This document shows positions 113 through 10,168 of a stretch of DNA of 39,671 nucleotides, piece by piece. This DNA is from Sphingomonas sp. 28-63-12. GTDB lineage: Bacteria > Pseudomonadota > Alphaproteobacteria > Sphingomonadales > Sphingomonadaceae. The translations under genes and the position numbers were made by a program. The notes below the pieces were generated by a model. The model did not search any database. It was not told the origin of the DNA and worked only from the letters and a program-made list of their open reading frames with translations. Position 1 is the first letter of the stretch; each line of letters starts with the position of its first letter. The DNA lies in NCBI GenBank assembly GCA_002281535.1, contig NCGD01000023.1:1-39671 (forward strand), given 5' to 3'.

Positions 113-144
113 TGGTGCCGCTTACAGGACTCGAACCTGTGACC
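113..144. repeat. Left attachment site (copy of tRNA-Thr 3' end)
   Basis: These 32 bases are identical to 10093-10124, which is the T-arm, acceptor 3' strand and CCA end of the intact tRNA-Thr. There is no tRNA body next to this copy, so it is a duplicated 3' end as left by a tRNA-targeting tyrosine integrase. Identity stops sharply on both sides: AC versus AG on the left, and AAGAAA versus CCGCAT on the right. It marks the distal end of the island. Confidence 0.9.
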
Positions 145-410: not shown

Positions 411-1622
411 TTAAACGCGCGTGAGCTTCGAACGATGGGAGTAGAAGTCACAACCGCCGCCGCCCGTCCATCCGACTAACGAGCTTATGCCACCCTCCTC
501 GCCTTCGCAAACGGCCCTCAATCTCTTCACGCAGTGGGTGGTGATGTGAGGCCCCTGCTCGATGCCGAGAAAGTCGCGTCCCATCTTCATGGCGACCGAC
601 GCGGTGGTGCCAGACCCCATGTAGGCGTCTAAGACCAAATCTCCCGGATTGCTTGCGATGTGTAGTATGCGTTGCACCAGCCCTTCGGGCTTCGGTGTGT
701 CGAAAACAGCCTCTTTCGTCAGCAGGGCCATAAGGTGCTTTTTCGCAGAATCCGTAGTGCCGACCTCATCGGCCATCCATAGCGTCGAGGGGGCAACGCC
801 AATCTTCGCCTCTTTCAGGTACTTTTTAAGGCGCGGCACCGCGTTCCCGTCACGACCGAAATAGACGCGACCGGCCCGAATCTCCGACTCCATCTTCACC
901 TTATTGTATACCCAACAGCGACCCTTTGGAGGGCTGTGCAATCGTCCATTTGGAGCGGCAAGCTTATAGAATTGCGACTTTGTGGCATGGCCGTCTTGAA
1001 CGTTGGCAGACACCGACTGCCACGCTCCGCGAGGGTCATTGTCGGGATTTTTATAACGAGCAAGCAACTCCGGCGGGGCAGCTAGCAGATTCCTGGAGCG
1101 TTTGAACGCCTCTGCGCTCTTTGCAAAACACAAAATGTACTCGTGGTTGGTGGAGAACGGTCTGCGGTTTTCTCTGGTCTTGCGGTGGTTCCAGACCACA
1201 GATGAGATAAAGTTTTCTGGCCTAAATACTTCGTCACCGATCTGCCTGAGGTTATGCAACTCGCTGTCATCAATCGATACCCATAGAGAACCGTCTACCG
1301 TTAGCGTTTCCCTAAGCGCGGCCATGCGAAGCGTCATGCGGTCAAGCCATACCCGCCGACCGAGCCGGTCATCGTAGTGCCGGTAAACCTCGGCATTGTT
1401 GTAAGGCGGATCGATGTAGACGCACTTTACGCGCCCCTTGATATCGTCGCCGAGAGAATCGAGCACCGCAAGGTTTTCGCCATGGACAATGGCGTTGCCG
1501 GTATGGGCCTCTCCTACGCACAGCTTCGCCTCTAGGGTAAAGTCGTTGCTCCCTTCCAACAAGCGCGGTAGCGAGACCGGTTCTGAAAAGGTTGTTGGCT
1601 TGCTTCTCATTGCCCTCGCCAT
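411..1622 (-). CDS. DNA methyltransferase, beta class (Mod-like, probably N6-adenine)
   Basis: This is a site-specific DNA methyltransferase of the N6_N4_Mtase family, 403 aa. The catalytic motif IV DPPY is at residues 71-74 in the context CVYIDPPYNN. The SAM-binding motif I (DAYMGSGTT) comes after it, at about 332-340. The order IV before I defines the beta class seen in type III Mod and several type II enzymes. DPPY rather than SPPY favours m6A over m4C. The C-terminus carries a GWTGGGG motif typical of Mod-like enzymes (about 385-391) but stops some 12 residues later, so it is shorter than type III Mod subunits. It is divergent from the D12 methyltransferase, with about 60 bp between the chosen starts. 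With that gene and the PLD nuclease it probably forms one restriction-modification system. The start is ATG at 1622; no strong ribosome site is visible. Confidence 0.88.
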   Translation of the reverse strand: MARAMRSKPTTFSEPVSLPRLLEGSNDFTLEAKLCVGEAHTGNAIVHGENLAVLDSLGDDIKGRVKCVYIDPPYNNAEVYRHYDDRLGRRVWLDRMTLRMAALRETLTVDGSLWVSIDDSELHNLRQIGDEVFRPENFISSVVWNHRKTRENRRPFSTNHEYILCFAKSAEAFKRSRNLLAAPPELLARYKNPDNDPRGAWQSVSANVQDGHATKSQFYKLAAPNGRLHSPPKGRCWVYNKVKMESEIRAGRVYFGRDGNAVPRLKKYLKEAKIGVAPSTLWMADEVGTTDSAKKHLMALLTKEAVFDTPKPEGLVQRILHIASNPGDLVLDAYMGSGTTASVAMKMGRDFLGIEQGPHITTHCVKRLRAVCEGEEGGISSLVGWTGGGGCDFYSHRSKLTRV

Positions 1623-1684
1623 GTTTGATCGTCGCGTTTGCCATTAGTCCGTCGAATCCTAGGGCCTCAAGGATAACAAAGCCA

Positions 1685-3055
1685 TTGCAGAAAAATAGCC
1701 CGGCAGAAGCTCACACTGCGCGCTCTGAGTGGTTCGGCGACGCTGCACCCAGCTTCGTCTTCCGACCAATCCACTATCTCGGGAGCAAGCTTCGCATCTT
1801 GGAAGCAATAGGACAGGCCGTTGACCGGGTTGATCCGTCGGGTGGCCCTGTCTGCGACCTTTTTTCCGGATCGGCCACCGTGTCCCGGTACCTGTCCCAG
1901 CATCGACGGGTCTTGGCAGTGGACGTCCAAGAGTACGGGCGCGTTCTGGCAGAAGCAGTTCTAAACGGCCACCCGACTTGGTCCGCCGCATTGGTCGAGA
2001 AGTCGCTCAGCGACGACGACCGGGGACAAGCGATCCGGCGTGCGGTCGAACCTCTTATCAGGTTTGAGAACGAAGCGGCGAAGTCCGCGATGAGGGGCGA
2101 CATCGAGCCGCTATGCCAGCTTCTAGAGTTAGGCAACCTTGCAAGTCTGAGCGCAAACAATTTCCCTATCAGTTCACAGCTAAGCAAAGCCGTGCATGAA
2201 TCGCAAGGTCGGATTGATGCACTGGCGTTGTCTGGCGCAGAAACCGTTTGTGTTCGGCATTTTGGTGGACAGTACTTCAGCTATGCACAGGCGGTAGAAT
2301 TGGACGCAATCGCCGATCTAGCGCGGGATCACCGAAACTCGGTAATGTTAGCTGCGGCACTGAGTACCGCGAGTCACCTCGTAAACTCAATTGGGAAGCA
2401 ATTCGCCCAACCCATACGGCCAAGGGACAAGTTTGGAGTACCGAAGCGCCACATAGTAAAGAAGATTTTATTGGAACGTAGCCTCTCGGCTCGATCAGTT
2501 TTTATGGGTTACTTACGACAATATGAGAGGCTTGCCGTTAATAGACATGATCACGTCGCAGTTCGGGCTGATTTTCGTGAGATACTGGCTAATCCAACCT
2601 TCAAGCCCGCGGTAGTCTATGCCGATCCACCATACACGCGGGACCACTACAGCCGCTTCTACCACAGCCTTGAGACTATCGCTCTAGGAGACGATCCCCT
2701 TATTACGAATAGCAACCTTGGCGGCGGCAAACTTCAAAGCCGTGGCGGCTATAGAGCGGGGCGACACCAGTCACCTTTTTGCATCAAGTCGGAGGCTCCG
2801 GCGGCGTTCTCGGCACTTTTCGGTGGCGTCGCGGCACTCAACGTGCCCCTTGTTCTTTCTTATTCCGGCTACGACCCAAGCACGGAAGCTCGGCCACGTG
2901 TCATGGCGCTCGACGCAGTCATTGACCTTGCCCGGAAACACTTCGCACAGGTCGAAGTCCAGCAGTTGATGAACCTAGAGCATATGAAGCTCAACAAAAC
3001 CTCACTAAATAAGGCTGCAAACGGTACGACAGAAATATTGCTTCTCTGTCGTTAA
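1685..3055 (+). CDS. DNA adenine methyltransferase, D12 (alpha) class
   Basis: This is an N6-adenine DNA methyltransferase of the MethyltransfD12 family. Counting from the chosen start (456 aa), the N-terminal YLGSK typical of the class is at about 31-35, the SAM-binding FSGSA at 60-64, an acidic VLAVD strand end shortly after, and the catalytic DPPY at 314-317. The frame is open from TTG 1592, but that start would overlap the 5' end of the divergent methyltransferase gene. TTG 1685, preceded by AAGGA at 1669-1673, leaves all family motifs intact, so it is chosen; the start remains uncertain. The stop overlaps the convergent nuclease stop inside a shared TTAA (3052-3055). The sequence between motifs I and IV is long, as expected for a target-recognition insert. 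The likely role is to modify one strand of the target of the adjacent PLD nuclease. Confidence 0.87.
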   Translation: MQKNSPAEAHTARSEWFGDAAPSFVFRPIHYLGSKLRILEAIGQAVDRVDPSGGPVCDLFSGSATVSRYLSQHRRVLAVDVQEYGRVLAEAVLNGHPTWSAALVEKSLSDDDRGQAIRRAVEPLIRFENEAAKSAMRGDIEPLCQLLELGNLASLSANNFPISSQLSKAVHESQGRIDALALSGAETVCVRHFGGQYFSYAQAVELDAIADLARDHRNSVMLAAALSTASHLVNSIGKQFAQPIRPRDKFGVPKRHIVKKILLERSLSARSVFMGYLRQYERLAVNRHDHVAVRADFREILANPTFKPAVVYADPPYTRDHYSRFYHSLETIALGDDPLITNSNLGGGKLQSRGGYRAGRHQSPFCIKSEAPAAFSALFGGVAALNVPLVLSYSGYDPSTEARPRVMALDAVIDLARKHFAQVEVQQLMNLEHMKLNKTSLNKAANGTTEILLLCR

Positions 3056-4119
3056 TGGAGGAGTAGAGGGTTGTCGGCCCAAGCGGCTCTGATGTCGCTC
3101 TGTGTCACAACGACTCTACGTTTTGAATTGCCAGATACGAAGTAATTGTCATTCAGAAATTTCTGTACTTGCATATGCCCTTCCTCGCCCGGCTTGAGAA
3201 GAACATACTTATATTCGGACTTACCAATGCGCTCGAACACCAAGATAAAGTGATCATTTTCTGGGTGCTGTCGACCACTAAGCGCCTCTACCTCGAACCG
3301 GTAGTTGCTACTCTTTACGGCTACCGCGTGGCGATATTCTGGCGGAGCTAGTGATCCGTTCGGCTTAACCTGATAGAAAGTGACTTCACGCGGCTTGCCG
3401 ATCGTTACGCCGAAGAAGCCTTGGTAAGTGTCGATCCCGAAATCAGCCTGACCCGGCCGGTTCTTTGGTACCTCAGCGATCAAAAACGGGTTGAGCGATA
3501 CCGCCTCAGCGGCTTCTTCCTCAAGCGCAGCAAGCGCCTCCCCATCCGTCTCCTTAACCGCTTTCTGGATTCTCGCCCTTGTCTTCGCGTTCAGTGCTGC
3601 CTGGGCGGTCACCCGAGGATCATCTGGCGGGAGCAAGTTGTCCTTGTGGTCAACCACCCACTTGGCCCACTGAGCCTCAAGGAAAGCTGCGTCGGCATTG
3701 GAGACCTCGGCCTTCCAAAATGCCTCCCAGTTGTTCCGAAGACCGCCAAGGGTCAAATTGCCCGAGCCGGTGAGGCAAGTCCCGCCAACGGCGTTTTTGA
3801 AAAACATGGTCTTGGGATGGTACAAGACCCCGCCCTTCGGATTGTAGAATAGTGAGACGCACGCATTCGGAAGAGCCGCTTTTGCCGTCTTGATGGCGGC
3901 TACCGCTGCGGTGTCAGTTATAGCGTCGAGTCCGAGCACCAGCTGGAAGTGCCCCGTTGCAAGGAGCTTGCGCACAGAAGGTTCAGCAAGGGCTGTGTCA
4001 ATGCCGGTTGACGTTGCGAACGCAAAAGCAGCGAACCCGCCTGAGGCACCCGTTGCTGCGTCTACTAGCGCGGCATGAAGGGTGTCAGCGCCTCCGGGAA
4101 CTTGAAACGTAAGGGTCAT
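3052..4119 (-). CDS. PLD-family restriction endonuclease (NgoFVII/BfiI-like)
   Basis: Predicted 355-aa nuclease. The N-terminal half has a phospholipase D-type active site: H101 and K103 (YHPKTMFF), then a GSGN motif with N121 and a glutamate at 132 (NNWEA). This arrangement is typical of single-motif PLD nucleases that act as dimers without a metal ion, such as BfiI. The C-terminal part (about 205-345) contains PKNRPGQADFGID followed by YQGFFG, resembling the B3-like DNA-binding domain of BfiI/NgoFVII-type enzymes; this assignment is by eye. The start ATG 4119 has GGGG at a suitable distance upstream; the frame stays open to 4212, but those residues look like leader sequence. The neighbouring two methyltransferases of different classes support a type II restriction role. 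A non-defence PLD protein is less likely in this context. Confidence 0.8.
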   Translation of the reverse strand: MTLTFQVPGGADTLHAALVDAATGASGGFAAFAFATSTGIDTALAEPSVRKLLATGHFQLVLGLDAITDTAAVAAIKTAKAALPNACVSLFYNPKGGVLYHPKTMFFKNAVGGTCLTGSGNLTLGGLRNNWEAFWKAEVSNADAAFLEAQWAKWVVDHKDNLLPPDDPRVTAQAALNAKTRARIQKAVKETDGEALAALEEEAAEAVSLNPFLIAEVPKNRPGQADFGIDTYQGFFGVTIGKPREVTFYQVKPNGSLAPPEYRHAVAVKSSNYRFEVEALSGRQHPENDHFILVFERIGKSEYKYVLLKPGEEGHMQVQKFLNDNYFVSGNSKRRVVVTQSDIRAAWADNPLLLH

Positions 4120-4626: not shown

Positions 4627-5205
4627 ATGGCTCGCACCTTCGCATACTGCCGCGTTAGCACCATCGACCAGACCACGGACAACCAAGTGGGGGAGATTGT
4701 AGCGGCGGGCTTTGCCATCGATCCCAAGCGGGTTGTGACTGAAACGGTATCAGGCTCAACGGCTGCCCTTGAACGCAAGGGGTTCGCCAAGCTGCTGGAC
4801 AGGCTAGAAGCCGGTGATGTGCTCATTGTCACCAAGCTAGATCGCCTAGGCCGCAACGCTATGGACGTGCGTATGTCTGTGGAAGCCTTGGCCAGCGCCG
4901 GGGTGCGCGTGCATTGCCTCGCACTGGGGGGCATGGACCTCACAAGTTCGGCGGGCAAGATGACCATGGGCGTGATCAATGTTTTCGCCGAGTTCGAGCG
5001 GGATTTGCTGGTGGAGCGAACGCAGTCCGGTTTGCAGCGCGCCAAAGCCGCTGGGAAGGTGCTGGGGCGACCATCCGCACTCGACGGTGCCACGCAGGCC
5101 AAAATCCGCGAACGCCGTCTGGCGGGGCATTCGCTGGGCGTGCTGGCGAAGGAGTATGGGGTATCTCGGGCAGCTATCCAGCGGGTGGAGAAGCGTGCCG
5201 GTTGA
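4627..5205 (+). CDS. Serine recombinase, resolvase/invertase family
   Basis: 192-aa small serine recombinase. The N-terminal catalytic domain begins with YCRVST (nucleophile S11), followed by the conserved VTKLDRLGRN segment and the FAEFERDLLVERTQ stretch of Tn3 resolvases and Pin-type invertases. The C-terminus (about 160-190) is a helix-turn-helix (GHSLGVLAKEYGVSRAAIQ). All expected residues appear intact, so it is probably active. No transposase or transposon ends were found around it. It is therefore an orphan resolvase or invertase within the island, possibly resolving island dimers or acting on the nested repeats just upstream. The start ATG 4627 is preceded by CAGGGAT at a long spacing. 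It reads toward the HNH nuclease gene, which has its own promoter. Confidence 0.93.
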   Translation: MARTFAYCRVSTIDQTTDNQVGEIVAAGFAIDPKRVVTETVSGSTAALERKGFAKLLDRLEAGDVLIVTKLDRLGRNAMDVRMSVEALASAGVRVHCLALGGMDLTSSAGKMTMGVINVFAEFERDLLVERTQSGLQRAKAAGKVLGRPSALDGATQAKIRERRLAGHSLGVLAKEYGVSRAAIQRVEKRAG

Positions 5206-5323: not shown

Positions 5324-6130
5324 ATGGCAAAGCCTACCTTAAGATCAATGAAGCGCGACGAGGCCGCCTACCTAATCTGGCCCGTGTTGACTAATGTGTC
5401 TCGCAGTAAGGACAAAATCTACTATTCCCAACTCGCTGATACTATCGGAGCAATCGACAGGCGGTTAGGCTGGCCGTTGCGGCTCATTCAAGAATACTGT
5501 TTGACGGGATTGCTACCCCCACTAACCATATTAGTCGTGTCGAAGGCGGACCAAGCCCCGGGACACGGCTTTACAGCCTGGGATTTGAATGAACGCGAGG
5601 CAGGCTACACAGCCGTATGGGACTACCCATGGCCAACCGAGAACCCGTTCCAATATGCCACTTCTGGTCAGACGTTAGAGGGTCTTGCGGACGATATTTG
5701 CGACGATCCGAACGTAGCTGAGCAAGTTTATGCCTTGGTTGCCGTTCGAGGGGCGGCACAAATGGTTTTCCGCCAAGCGGTTTTGGCAGCCTATGGCCAC
5801 CGCTGCGCGATTTGTCGGCTGTCCATTCGAGAGTGCCTAGAGGCTGCGCACATTATTCCATGGTCGGCGGCTAGTGCGGCCCAGCGTGTCAGCCCAACTA
5901 ATGGCCTCTGCTTGTGCGCAAACCATCATCGTCTGTTCGACAGGGGGATGATGACCATCACCGTTGACGGCCTTGTTGCATGCGAACAGGCTCGGTTGTC
6001 CCACCCTGATCGCACATCAGACCAGAAGCTAACGATGGCTTTCCACGGGAAGAAAGCACACCTTCCGGGGAAGAGTAAACTAAGGCCGTCACCCGAAGCG
6101 CTCGCCTACCGCCTTAAAGCTCTTGAATAG
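5324..6130 (+). CDS. HNH endonuclease, restriction-like
   Basis: 268-aa predicted nuclease. The C-terminal half holds an HNH (beta-beta-alpha metal) domain: CAIC at 161-164, AAHII with H176, N193, and NHHRLFD with H201/H202 and D206. The N-terminal about 90 residues (ending near PPLTILVV and GHGFTAWD) match an N-terminal region I recall from HNH-type restriction proteins; its function is unknown. The ATG start has AGGG (5312-5315) at suitable spacing. It follows the serine recombinase by 118 bp and has its own promoter. No dedicated methyltransferase adjoins it, so it could target modified or phage DNA; that is inference. All HNH catalytic residues are present. Confidence 0.85.
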   Translation: MAKPTLRSMKRDEAAYLIWPVLTNVSRSKDKIYYSQLADTIGAIDRRLGWPLRLIQEYCLTGLLPPLTILVVSKADQAPGHGFTAWDLNEREAGYTAVWDYPWPTENPFQYATSGQTLEGLADDICDDPNVAEQVYALVAVRGAAQMVFRQAVLAAYGHRCAICRLSIRECLEAAHIIPWSAASAAQRVSPTNGLCLCANHHRLFDRGMMTITVDGLVACEQARLSHPDRTSDQKLTMAFHGKKAHLPGKSKLRPSPEALAYRLKALE

Positions 6131-7295: not shown

Positions 7296-7550
7296 GTGTC
7301 GGGGGTGGCACGAATATCGGGACAGCAGGATGGCGACGGCCTCCTGATCAAGCTGGGTGAGGCTGTGAGGGCCTTGCGGAAGGCACGCGGGCTGTCTCAG
7401 GAAGCCCTTGCGGACGCGGCGGGGATCGACCGTTCGCACATGGGCAAAATCGAGCGGGGCGAGCGCAACGTCACCATCATGAACATCGCCCGCATAGCCT
7501 CTGCACTCAACGCCAAGCCATCGGATATTTTAGGCGCAGCCGGGCTTTAG
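7296..7550 (+). CDS. XRE-family HTH regulator
   Basis: 84-aa DNA-binding protein consisting almost entirely of a Cro/C1-type helix-turn-helix: LGEAVRALRKARGLSQEALA, then GIDRSHMGKIERGERN, then the IARIASALNAKPSDIL helix. Such proteins act as dimeric repressors, often of their own and the divergent gene. The likely start is GTG 7296; GTG 7305 is an in-frame alternative and neither has a strong ribosome site. It lies divergent to the small membrane protein, whose promoter it may control. No toxin gene overlaps it, so a toxin-antitoxin assignment is not supported. Confidence 0.85.
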   Translation: MSGVARISGQQDGDGLLIKLGEAVRALRKARGLSQEALADAAGIDRSHMGKIERGERNVTIMNIARIASALNAKPSDILGAAGL

Positions 7551-7633: not shown

Positions 7634-8380
7634 CTACGAACGGGTCGCTATCCTAGCATCCACGATACGCAATAAATGGCTTGCCAACATCACGATCTCG
7701 GCTGCTTCTGCTGGATCATCTAGGGGCACACGGCGGTGCGAGTGGGGGTTTTTGTACGACCCTATAGCGCCAGCAACCAGCGACGAGAGAGCCTCCTTCT
7801 CAGCCTCCTCAGCTGCGCTATCTGTAAGCGGACCATTCTCCTTATGAAAAGCCCTGCGAACCATGGGCACGCCATGATCGCCCTGTGGAAACCCAGCACC
7901 CTCGCGCACAGCAATTTCAACCTCGCGCATGGCCTCAAAGACCGCAGTTGCGTAGTTCCCCCGTACGAAGGAGAGCCAAGCGTTGTTGGCAATACGGTGA
8001 TGGAGTAGCCCGCGCGGCAATAGCTGGGCAGAACGATAGTCGGCGAAGTCTTGGGACGTCTTCAACTGCCTAGCGCGCCGAGACATCACAAGGTAGCCGT
8101 TCGATCCATTTGGTCCCGGCGCAGGGATCAACAGCACCTGAGACTGCATCCAAGCAAAGGCTTCCCCTATCGCCATTTCAACGACGTCGCGCTGATGCGC
8201 AGGATACCCGCCAGCGCCGGAAGAGTGGGTGGCCCATATATGGCTAACCACTATGCCGGGGCTAACGAGGCTGTTGGGACTTTCGTTGAACATGGCCACT
8301 AGCTGTTCGCTCAACTCTTCTGGGGTAAGAGCTAGCAAAACTTGAACATCAGGGATGCGGGTCGTGAGATTGGGCATCAC
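7634..8380 (-). CDS. TIGR02391 (Ymh) family protein
   Basis: 248-aa protein of the Ymh/TIGR02391 family. The conserved C-terminal block is recognisable: YATAVFEAMREVEIAVRE, then MVRRAF, then LSSLVAGAIGSYKNPHSHR (about residues 145-222). The molecular function is not established. Members are common near phage-defence and restriction genes and in mobile DNA, which fits this island. The N-terminal about 130 residues contain PEELSEQLVAMFNE and are not recognised. The start is GTG 8380 or ATG 8377, with no clear Shine-Dalgarno. It is convergent with the XRE gene (83 bp apart) and shares the strand of the integrase, 126 bp after the integrase stop. Confidence 0.8.
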   Translation of the reverse strand: MMPNLTTRIPDVQVLLALTPEELSEQLVAMFNESPNSLVSPGIVVSHIWATHSSGAGGYPAHQRDVVEMAIGEAFAWMQSQVLLIPAPGPNGSNGYLVMSRRARQLKTSQDFADYRSAQLLPRGLLHHRIANNAWLSFVRGNYATAVFEAMREVEIAVREGAGFPQGDHGVPMVRRAFHKENGPLTDSAAEEAEKEALSSLVAGAIGSYKNPHSHRRVPLDDPAEAAEIVMLASHLLRIVDARIATRS

Positions 8381-8505: not shown

Positions 8506-9999
8506 CTAAGGCCACCCAGGAATGGCGTGGCGGGGTAGCTTGGCGACTGCCGCCGCCTGAGCTTTCAGCGATACGCTACCGTAGGTCTGGCCTACACTTC
8601 TCGGCTTGTGGCCCTGAATGGCATCAGCAACCCTCTCAGGTATTTCCGCCTCAATCGCCAACGTCTTGAACGTGTGACGCCATGCATGGTTGGGCATGAT
8701 GGCAATGTCCGTAATGCCAACATCATCACGCACCCACTTCGCAAGACGCTCGCCCACCTTTTTCGGGTGCCGGTTTGCAAGGCCCGGCGTCCTTACCAAT
8801 CTGGGGTCGTAAAAGATTGGCGAGGCACCCGCTGCCTCTGCAACAGCCAGAAACCCCTGCTCGATCAAATGGGCGTGTAAGGGGACAATACGTGCCTCGT
8901 TCGTCTTTTGAGTGCCAGCTTCGGGAGTTACTCGCATGGTCCAAAATCCGTCGATCTGGGCAATATCTTCACCGCGAAGCTGGGTTATCTCGTTAACGCG
9001 AGCACCCGTGTAGGCACAAAGCCAAGGCACCCACCGCCGGGCCAAAGCCAAGTGATCCGATATCGCAGACTTGGAAGGAACTAGCGACGCCGCTAGGATT
9101 GCGTTGGCTTCAAGGGATGTGAAATCTCTCTCCCTAAGCTTCACTTTTTTTGGCACCCGAATTACGATCAGTTTCGCCACGTTATCAGTCAACTTACGCT
9201 TTTCGACAGCCCAATTGAGGGTAGCCCTAAGCGCGGCAAAGTACTTGTCCTTGACCGTAGTGGGCGACCGCAGCGACCCGCGCTTGGTAATCTCGCCAAG
9301 TAGCTTTTCACGCCAGCGATCTAGGTCGTCCACGCCAATGCGTGTAGCATCGTCATGTCCCAAGAAATCGACTAAGGCGTTGATGTTCCGACGCCACTCG
9401 TACGTGGTCGTGGGTTTGAGCCCCTGTTCTTTGGCATAGGCATCAAAGATAACAAGCAAGGGCACCGGCTCGGTCCGGCGAGCAGCATCACGAGCTAAAT
9501 TGGCCTGCCCCTCGCTCTGCCGTTCCGCGACAAGCGCGGCGTACCGTGCGTCACGCTCCCGCAGAATATCCCGCATGGCCTGCTCAGAGAGGTGTAATTC
9601 ATTGCTACGCCGTGTCGCCAAGCGGTGCCGCAGGGTTGATCGCTCGGGTGCTCGGGCTTCCCAGCGATCGGCAGCAGCCTTTGCTTCGGCAGCTTCGTAG
9701 TCAGCCTGTTCAGCTTGCCCCGGCGAGGCAGCCAAAGGCTTCACCTGAGCATCAGCGGCAGTGTTGGTCAGTGTCGCCTGCGAACGGTCGCTATCACGCT
9801 GTAGCGCCCCTCTGGCCTCGGCAATCAACGCATCCGTAGCAATGGTGTGCTCGGGGATTTTCCGCTTTGCGGTTTCCCGATCCTTGCACCGCAGCGAGAT
9901 CATCCACTCCCGACGGTTTTGTGCGTAGGGCTGCAACTCCTCAGGCACCGGCCTGCGAAAATAGTAGGTAGCTCCACGCTTGGCGAGGTAGGTGCACAT
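8506..9999 (-). CDS. Tyrosine recombinase, island integrase
   Basis: 497-aa site-specific integrase. The N-terminus (MCTYLAKRGATYYFRRPVP) is the short beta domain found in many proteobacterial island integrases. A long charged segment follows, then a core-binding SAM-like domain (about 182-270). The catalytic domain has R334 (YTGARVNEI), K365, H438 and R441 (HAWRH), H464 (QGHK) and the nucleophile Y473, a complete set. It sits 93 bp from the 3' end of tRNA-Thr, in the same direction as the tRNA, which is the usual layout for an integrase that attacks a tRNA 3' end. AGGACAGG upstream of ATG 9999 serves as ribosome site. It presumably integrates and excises the 113-10124 element. Confidence 0.96.
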   Translation of the reverse strand: MCTYLAKRGATYYFRRPVPEELQPYAQNRREWMISLRCKDRETAKRKIPEHTIATDALIAEARGALQRDSDRSQATLTNTAADAQVKPLAASPGQAEQADYEAAEAKAAADRWEARAPERSTLRHRLATRRSNELHLSEQAMRDILRERDARYAALVAERQSEGQANLARDAARRTEPVPLLVIFDAYAKEQGLKPTTTYEWRRNINALVDFLGHDDATRIGVDDLDRWREKLLGEITKRGSLRSPTTVKDKYFAALRATLNWAVEKRKLTDNVAKLIVIRVPKKVKLRERDFTSLEANAILAASLVPSKSAISDHLALARRWVPWLCAYTGARVNEITQLRGEDIAQIDGFWTMRVTPEAGTQKTNEARIVPLHAHLIEQGFLAVAEAAGASPIFYDPRLVRTPGLANRHPKKVGERLAKWVRDDVGITDIAIMPNHAWRHTFKTLAIEAEIPERVADAIQGHKPRSVGQTYGSVSLKAQAAAVAKLPRHAIPGWP

Positions 10000-10092: not shown

Positions 10093-10124
10093 TGGTGCCG
10101 CTTACAGGACTCGAACCTGTGACC
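10093..10124. repeat. Right attachment site inside tRNA-Thr
   Basis: This is the 32-base copy identical to 113-144. It covers the CCA end, discriminator, 3' acceptor strand and T-arm of tRNA-Thr, so the tRNA gene stays intact after integration. Confidence 0.9.
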
Positions 10125-10168
10125 CCCGCATTACGAATGCGATGCTCTACCAGCTGAGCTAAAGCGGC
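10093..10168 (-). tRNA. tRNA-Thr (anticodon CGT)
   Basis: 76-nt cloverleaf on the minus strand with encoded CCA. The acceptor stem is GCCGCTT/AAGCGGC with discriminator A. The D-arm contains AGCTCAGCTGGTAGAGC. The anticodon loop is TTCGTAA (anticodon CGT, reading ACG) on the stem TCGCA/TGCGG. The T-loop is TTCGAGT on an ACAGG/CCTGT stem. Its 3' end is the integration target of the adjacent island. Confidence 0.97.

What the first reader, a model, noticed from the sequence alone, without database searches (positions are those of the whole stretch)
411..4119. Two unlike methyltransferases plus a metal-independent-type PLD nuclease: a probable type IIS restriction system
A beta-class DPPY enzyme, an alpha-class D12 enzyme and a PLD-fold nuclease (H101, K103, N121, E132) with a probable B3-like C-terminal domain are packed together. 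BfiI-type systems need two methyltransferases because the target is asymmetric. Here both enzymes look like adenine methylases of different classes, which suggests an asymmetric target with A on both strands. The combination and specificity appear worth defining.
Basis: partly seen in the sequence, partly recalled or inferred. Interest (0 to 1): 0.75.

Follow-up and report, generated by a model that had tools for sequence, protein, structure and literature searches.

The report
BfiI-like restriction system, Mod-derived methylase
A small mobile DNA island carries what looks like a complete restriction system: a DNA cutter built like the unusual enzyme BfiI plus two unrelated protecting methylases, one of which looks like a cut-down type III methylase; it is a new variant of a known kind, and its DNA target is still unknown.

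The parts
411..1622 (-). beta-class DNA methylase, 403 aa, related to type III Mod but without the Mod C-terminal domain; probably marks one strand of the target
   Evidence: Pfam N6_N4_Mtase 1.4e-40; PADLOC MTase_III 9.9e-98; PDB Mods 6k0w 8.8e-40 and 4zcf 3e-20; chain ends where the roughly 115-aa tail of the L016 Mod begins
1685..3055 (+). D12 (alpha-class) DNA methylase, 456 aa from TTG 1685; probably marks the other strand
   Evidence: Pfam MethyltransfD12 8.2e-14; start chosen because L013, L014 and L002 copies are also 456 aa; 35% identical to the A. pittii copy
3052..4119 (-). PLD-B3 restriction endonuclease, 355 aa
   Evidence: BfiI best PDB profile hit, E 0.0021, and best Foldseek hit, E 7e-12; catalytic residues invariant in 7 of 7
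3055..3504 (-). C-terminal B3 DNA-recognition domain (residues 206-355)
113..144 (.). left attachment repeat of the island (32-nt copy of the tRNA-Thr 3' end)
   Evidence: direct repeat, the last 32 of 47 aligned bases identical
8506..9999 (-). tyrosine integrase of the island, 497 aa
   Evidence: Pfam Phage_integrase 1.7e-7
10093..10168 (-). tRNA-Thr(CGT), integration site; its 3' end (10093-10124) is the right repeat
   Evidence: ARAGORN, repeats

Best explanation
A type IIS restriction-modification cassette that works like BfiI. Shown by sequence and predicted fold: the nuclease has an N-terminal PLD domain with one HxK...N...E half-site and a C-terminal B3 domain; two methylases of unlike class travel with it; the beta methylase is an offshoot of type III Mod without the C-terminal domain that contacts Res in EcoP15I, and no Res was found in the island. 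Inferred from BfiI: two subunits pair so that their PLD domains form one metal-independent active site, the B3 domains bind a short asymmetric sequence, and DNA is cut a few bases downstream through a phospho-histidine intermediate. Inferred from gene content: each methylase marks one strand of that site, most likely at N6-adenine, so that both daughter duplexes stay marked after replication. The D12 enzyme would make good the type III habit of marking one strand only.
For: Profile match to BfiI 2c1l, E 0.0021, with the four catalytic residues aligned. Foldseek of the whole model: BfiI first, 7e-12 over 376 columns. B3 fold of the C-terminal domain folded alone. Catalytic residues invariant in 7 of 7 full-length relatives. 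Three-gene cassette in 5 complete loci including the window. Beta methylase clade 100/99 inside the Mods. BfiI has two methylases acting on opposite strands (PMC4267653, table note in a passage). None of the 8 island proteins scanned with Pfam is a helicase or ATPase.
Against: Each single piece of the BfiI profile match is weak on its own (i-Evalues 0.11 and 270), and structural identity is only 13-14%. The whole-chain model has pLDDT 72 and superposes on BfiI with rmsd 13.4, so the domain arrangement is not supported. By VIA Z, SauUSI (15.7, PLD part only) ranks above BfiI (14.6). NgoAVII R-protein has the same two domains and needs an ATPase. L016 has the nuclease without D12, so two methylases are not obligatory in the family. 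No activity was measured.
Confidence: 0.8

Rival explanations
1. CglI/NgoAVII-like: the PLD-B3 protein binds the site but needs a separate helicase-like ATPase to cut.
For: NgoAVII R-protein is Foldseek rank 4 (7.4e-6); R-proteins of that type do not cut alone (PMC4267653, passage). In L016 the nuclease does sit beside a helicase-type Res.
Against: No ATPase among the 8 island proteins scanned; BfiI scores better; CglI and NgoAVII have a C5-cytosine methylase (PMC4267653), here there are two amino-methylases. A partner elsewhere in the genome was not searched for.
Confidence: 0.07
2. The nuclease works in a complex with the Mod-like methylase, which helps to find the site, as a type III-like assembly without Res.
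For: A Mod-like methylase is next to the nuclease in 6 of 6 full-length loci whose neighbourhood is complete, also where D12 is missing (L016).
Against: The nuclease has its own B3 recognition domain and the methylase has lost the domain by which Mod contacts Res (PMC4490356, passages).
Confidence: 0.06
3. The nuclease is a modification-dependent (type IV) enzyme and the methylases belong to something else.
Against: SauUSI reads modified DNA with an SRA domain and has an ATPase domain (PMC12707154, one passage); here the C-terminal domain is B3. The methylases would be targets of such an enzyme, yet the three genes are kept together.
Confidence: 0.03

Closest known systems
BfiI (and BmrI) type IIS system, ACTGGG 5/4
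   Same: PLD domain plus C-terminal B3 domain, 355 against 358 aa, same four catalytic residues; two methylases (PMC4267653)
   Different: 13-14% identity in structural alignment. The classes of BfiI's methylases were not seen in any call, so I cannot say whether a CTD-less Mod plus D12 pair is new to that system; target unknown
CglI / NgoAVII
   Same: R-protein with PLD and B3 domains (PMC4267653)
   Different: They have an ATPase subunit and one C5 methylase; no ATPase was found in this island and there are two amino-methylases
Type III systems (EcoP15I, 6k0w Mod)
   Same: Beta methylase core with inserted target-recognition region, 35-56% identical to 25 other Mods in BLASTP
   Different: No Mod C-terminal domain and no Res in the island; PLD-B3 nuclease and a second methylase instead
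LlaJI.R1, UbaLAI, EcoRII B3 domains
   Same: Fold of the recognition domain
   Different: Joined to other catalytic parts there (recalled)

Membership tests
BfiI-type type IIS restriction system | N-terminal PLD nuclease domain with a single HxK...N...E half-site | tested here: met
BfiI-type type IIS restriction system | C-terminal B3 DNA-binding domain | tested here: met
   (fold; binding itself not tested)
BfiI-type type IIS restriction system | Two methylases encoded with the nuclease | tested here: met
   window and 4 other complete loci; not in L016
BfiI-type type IIS restriction system | Methylases act on opposite strands of one asymmetric site | not testable with these tools
   needs a methylome
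BfiI-type type IIS restriction system | Metal-independent cutting at a fixed distance outside the site | not testable with these tools
   needs an assay
CglI/NgoAVII | Helicase-like ATPase subunit encoded with the R-protein | tested here: not met
   none among 8 island proteins scanned with Pfam
CglI/NgoAVII | C5-cytosine methylase | tested here: not met
   both methylases hit amino-methylase families
Type III restriction system | Mod-type beta methylase core | tested here: met
Type III restriction system | Mod C-terminal domain that contacts Res | tested here: not met
   absent in all five cassette copies (alignment); role taken from PMC4490356 (passages)
Type III restriction system | Res helicase-nuclease subunit | tested here: not met
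   none in the island; present in relative L016

The most novel reading that the evidence does not exclude
The PLD-B3 nuclease moves between type III and type IIS systems, and the window cassette is a type III system turned into type IIS: its Mod lost the domain that contacts Res, a D12 methylase was added to mark the second strand, and the PLD-B3 nuclease took the place of the motor. L016 (PLD-B3, full Mod, full Res in a row on one strand, no D12) would be a related hybrid in which a type III complex commands a second, metal-independent nuclease.
Probability: 0.3. Interest if true: 0.65.

Novelty: new variant of a known kind. Interest (0 to 1): 0.45.

Why it matters
BfiI is an odd restriction enzyme: it cuts without metal and uses one active site for both strands. 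A distant relative with its own methylase pair would show which features of BfiI are general, and might give an EDTA-tolerant type IIS enzyme with a new target. The CTD-less Mod clade makes a question testable: how a one-strand type III methylase is re-used in a system that needs both strands protected.

Tried and rejected
Searches with the nuclease sequence alone were too weak: phmmer against PDB found nothing at E up to 10; the class search found only the window's own copy, 1 of 289; one viral-contig scan with it and one with a 7-row alignment gave no confirmed relative; tblastn against phages found none. Profile searches: 19 of 398 genomes of the phylum matched at E up to 1e-3, and the 18 besides the window's own matched only within profile positions 11-190 of 362, the PLD part; in the phylum of G659, 3 of 345, of which two partial and one the known L017 copy; in the window's family, 8 of 347, of which seven partial and one its own. 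So full-length relatives were rare in what I searched: 7 loci in all (window, L002, L013-L017). Of the 7 loci of the genome scan, L018 and L019 match only part of the PLD domain and were left out of the counts of full-length relatives. The second profile match inside BfiI (its C-terminal half) is too weak to count alone (i-Evalue 270).

The target site could not be derived; no methylome and no table of methylase specificities was at hand. The place of the L016 Mod in the tree is unresolved (open fork), so I do not claim that it is ancestral. The D12 enzyme has no PDB relative by phmmer; the only row is an unrelated one at E 0.6. Of 10 plasmids with a D12 relative I looked at 6 (L002, L004-L008); of 275 with a Mod relative, at 5 (L002, L009-L012). 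The rows of the VIA list for the whole model that are neither PLD restriction enzymes nor B3 (for example polyphosphate kinase) were set aside as shared general fold. An alignment of the DNA between the divergent methylase genes showed no obvious operator to me.

Paper searches for this combination showed no description of it in the rows listed; most subscription papers are not held, and two BfiI structure papers that I asked for were not. I recall, without a source here, that BfiI's two methylases may differ in the base they modify.

Full report
Setting. The first 10 kb of the window hold a genomic island. A 32-nt copy of the tRNA-Thr 3' end at 113-144 is repeated exactly at 10093-10124, inside the intact tRNA-Thr(CGT) gene at 10093-10168. 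A tyrosine integrase lies next to the tRNA at 8506-9999. The contig begins at window base 1, so only 112 bases lie outside the left repeat. In 1 of 9 loci fetched from the same genus, 30 of these bases match at 90% identity, in the same orientation and 69 against 56 bases from the tRNA end. This is weak support that the left flank is chromosomal.

Cassette. Beta methylase 411-1622 (-), D12 methylase 1685-3055 (+), PLD nuclease 3052-4119 (-). The methylase genes diverge across 62 bp; D12 and the nuclease converge and their ends overlap by 4 bp. The same order with the same overlap is seen in L013, L014 and the A. pittii plasmid copy L002. L017 (Chitinophaga MAG) has all three genes on one strand. 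L015 has the nuclease and part of D12 and is then cut by the contig end. So 5 complete copies are known here, the window's included.

Nuclease. The sequence alone finds nothing in PDB. A 7-row profile finds BfiI (2c1l) as best chain with a whole-sequence E of 0.0021; the two matched pieces are in the right order, but each is weak alone (i-Evalues 0.11 and 270). In that alignment window H101, K103, N121 and E132 stand on BfiI H105, K107, N125 and E136 (counted by me from the printed alignment), and they are invariant in 7 of 7 full-length relatives, the window included. The model of the whole chain is moderate (pLDDT 71.9, pTM 0.56). Its best Foldseek match is BfiI, E 7.0e-12 over 376 columns, rmsd 13.4; SauUSI (2.4e-6) and NgoAVII R-protein (7.4e-6) follow. 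VIA-align ranks SauUSI first by Z (15.7, 159 residues of the PLD part) and BfiI second (14.6, 285 residues, rmsd 13.4). The large rmsd means that the two domains match BfiI one by one, not their mutual placing.

Methylases. The beta enzyme is closest to type III Mods in PADLOC (9.9e-98) and in PDB (6k0w 8.8e-40, 4zcf 3e-20). In a tree of 31 proteins (6 from loci with the nuclease, 25 other Mods: 4 from plasmids, 21 from genomes) the five of the PLD-D12 cassettes form one clade with 100/99 support inside the Mods. These five end close to the methylase core, L017 about 20 residues later; the L016 Mod goes on for about 115 residues. The 25 other Mods have 37-218 aa after the part aligned with the window's, 23 of them more than 100. 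In the stretches held, a Res relative lies beside 15 of the 25, a PLD or D12 relative beside 0 of 25; many of these stretches are short (3-4 kb), so absence means little. In EcoP15I the C-terminal domain (aa 539-644) of one Mod contacts Res, and the Mod dimer methylates one strand only (PMC4490356, passages). D12 relatives on five further plasmids: one beside a LlaJI-type nuclease, two beside BglII/BstYI-type nucleases, one of these and one more beside DGQHR genes, and one (L005) beside a hypothetical and a DUF2357 protein.

The exception. L016, a Terriglobia MAG contig, has a nuclease 36% identical to the window's, followed on the same strand by a 532-aa Mod and a 924-aa frame that is a type III Res (PADLOC REase_III 3.1e-108). 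Pfam sees ResIII (1.6e-20) and, below its cut-off, a TnsA-like nuclease domain near the end (3.2e-5); the letters there hold a D...E-V-K pattern (read by eye). No D12 relative was found in that genome at E up to 0.01 with the A. pittii D12 as query; how complete the MAG is was not told. So the PLD-B3 protein is not tied to D12 and can sit beside a type III system. It is one case.

How it most likely works. By analogy with BfiI (PMC4081073, PMC4267653 and PMC10388346, passages): a homodimer with one active site between the PLD domains, B3 domains that bind two copies of an asymmetric site, metal-independent cutting of one strand after the other through phospho-histidine. Two methylases protect the two strands. 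Shown here: gene content, folds, catalytic residues, recurrence of the unit, kinship of the beta methylase with Mod. Inferred: dimer, site, methylated bases, cut position, metal independence, phage defence.

Against my reading. Identity to BfiI is low (13-14%). NgoAVII-type proteins have the same two domains and need an ATPase; I looked for one only in the island. DPPY does not settle m6A for a Mod-like enzyme (PMC8259958, one passage). L016 lacks the second methylase. Nothing was measured.

Noticed in passing
window 5324-6130 (+): HNH protein, 268 aa: Pfam HNH_2 4.6e-16, PADLOC HNH 1e-26, NCBIfam phosphorothioate-DNA restriction enzyme 71 bits (below its cut-off of 180). Perhaps a second restriction gene in the island.
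   Followed up: no
window 4627-5205 (+), 7296-7550 (+), 7634-8380 (-): Other island genes: a small serine recombinase, an XRE-like helix-turn-helix frame of 84 aa (judged by eye), and a Hypoth_Ymh protein with a weak PADLOC PD-Lambda-3_B match (4.7e-7).
   Followed up: no
L016:7956-13358: Terriglobia contig: PLD-B3, full Mod and full Res in a row on one strand, without D12. A possible type III system with a second nuclease.
   Followed up: partly
L003:5956-6441: Paenarthrobacter plasmid: a 161-aa protein that matches only the C-terminal B3 part of the nuclease, beside two methylase genes and near an AAA ATPase.
   Followed up: partly
L002:1294-2505: The A. pittii nuclease has a run of VED repeats in the linker between its PLD and B3 parts, a repeat that could change linker length.
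   Followed up: no
L018:7905-11268; L042:5822-7779; L039:5587-8568: More distant PLD proteins lie next to methylase genes: two beta-type frames (L018), one beta-type (L042), and one 539-aa frame whose first letters look like a gamma-class methylase (L039, by eye).
   Followed up: partly
L013:12042-12118; L017:7450-7523: A tRNA gene lies within about 0.5 kb of the cassette in these two loci as well (tRNA-Arg, tRNA-Lys).
   Followed up: no
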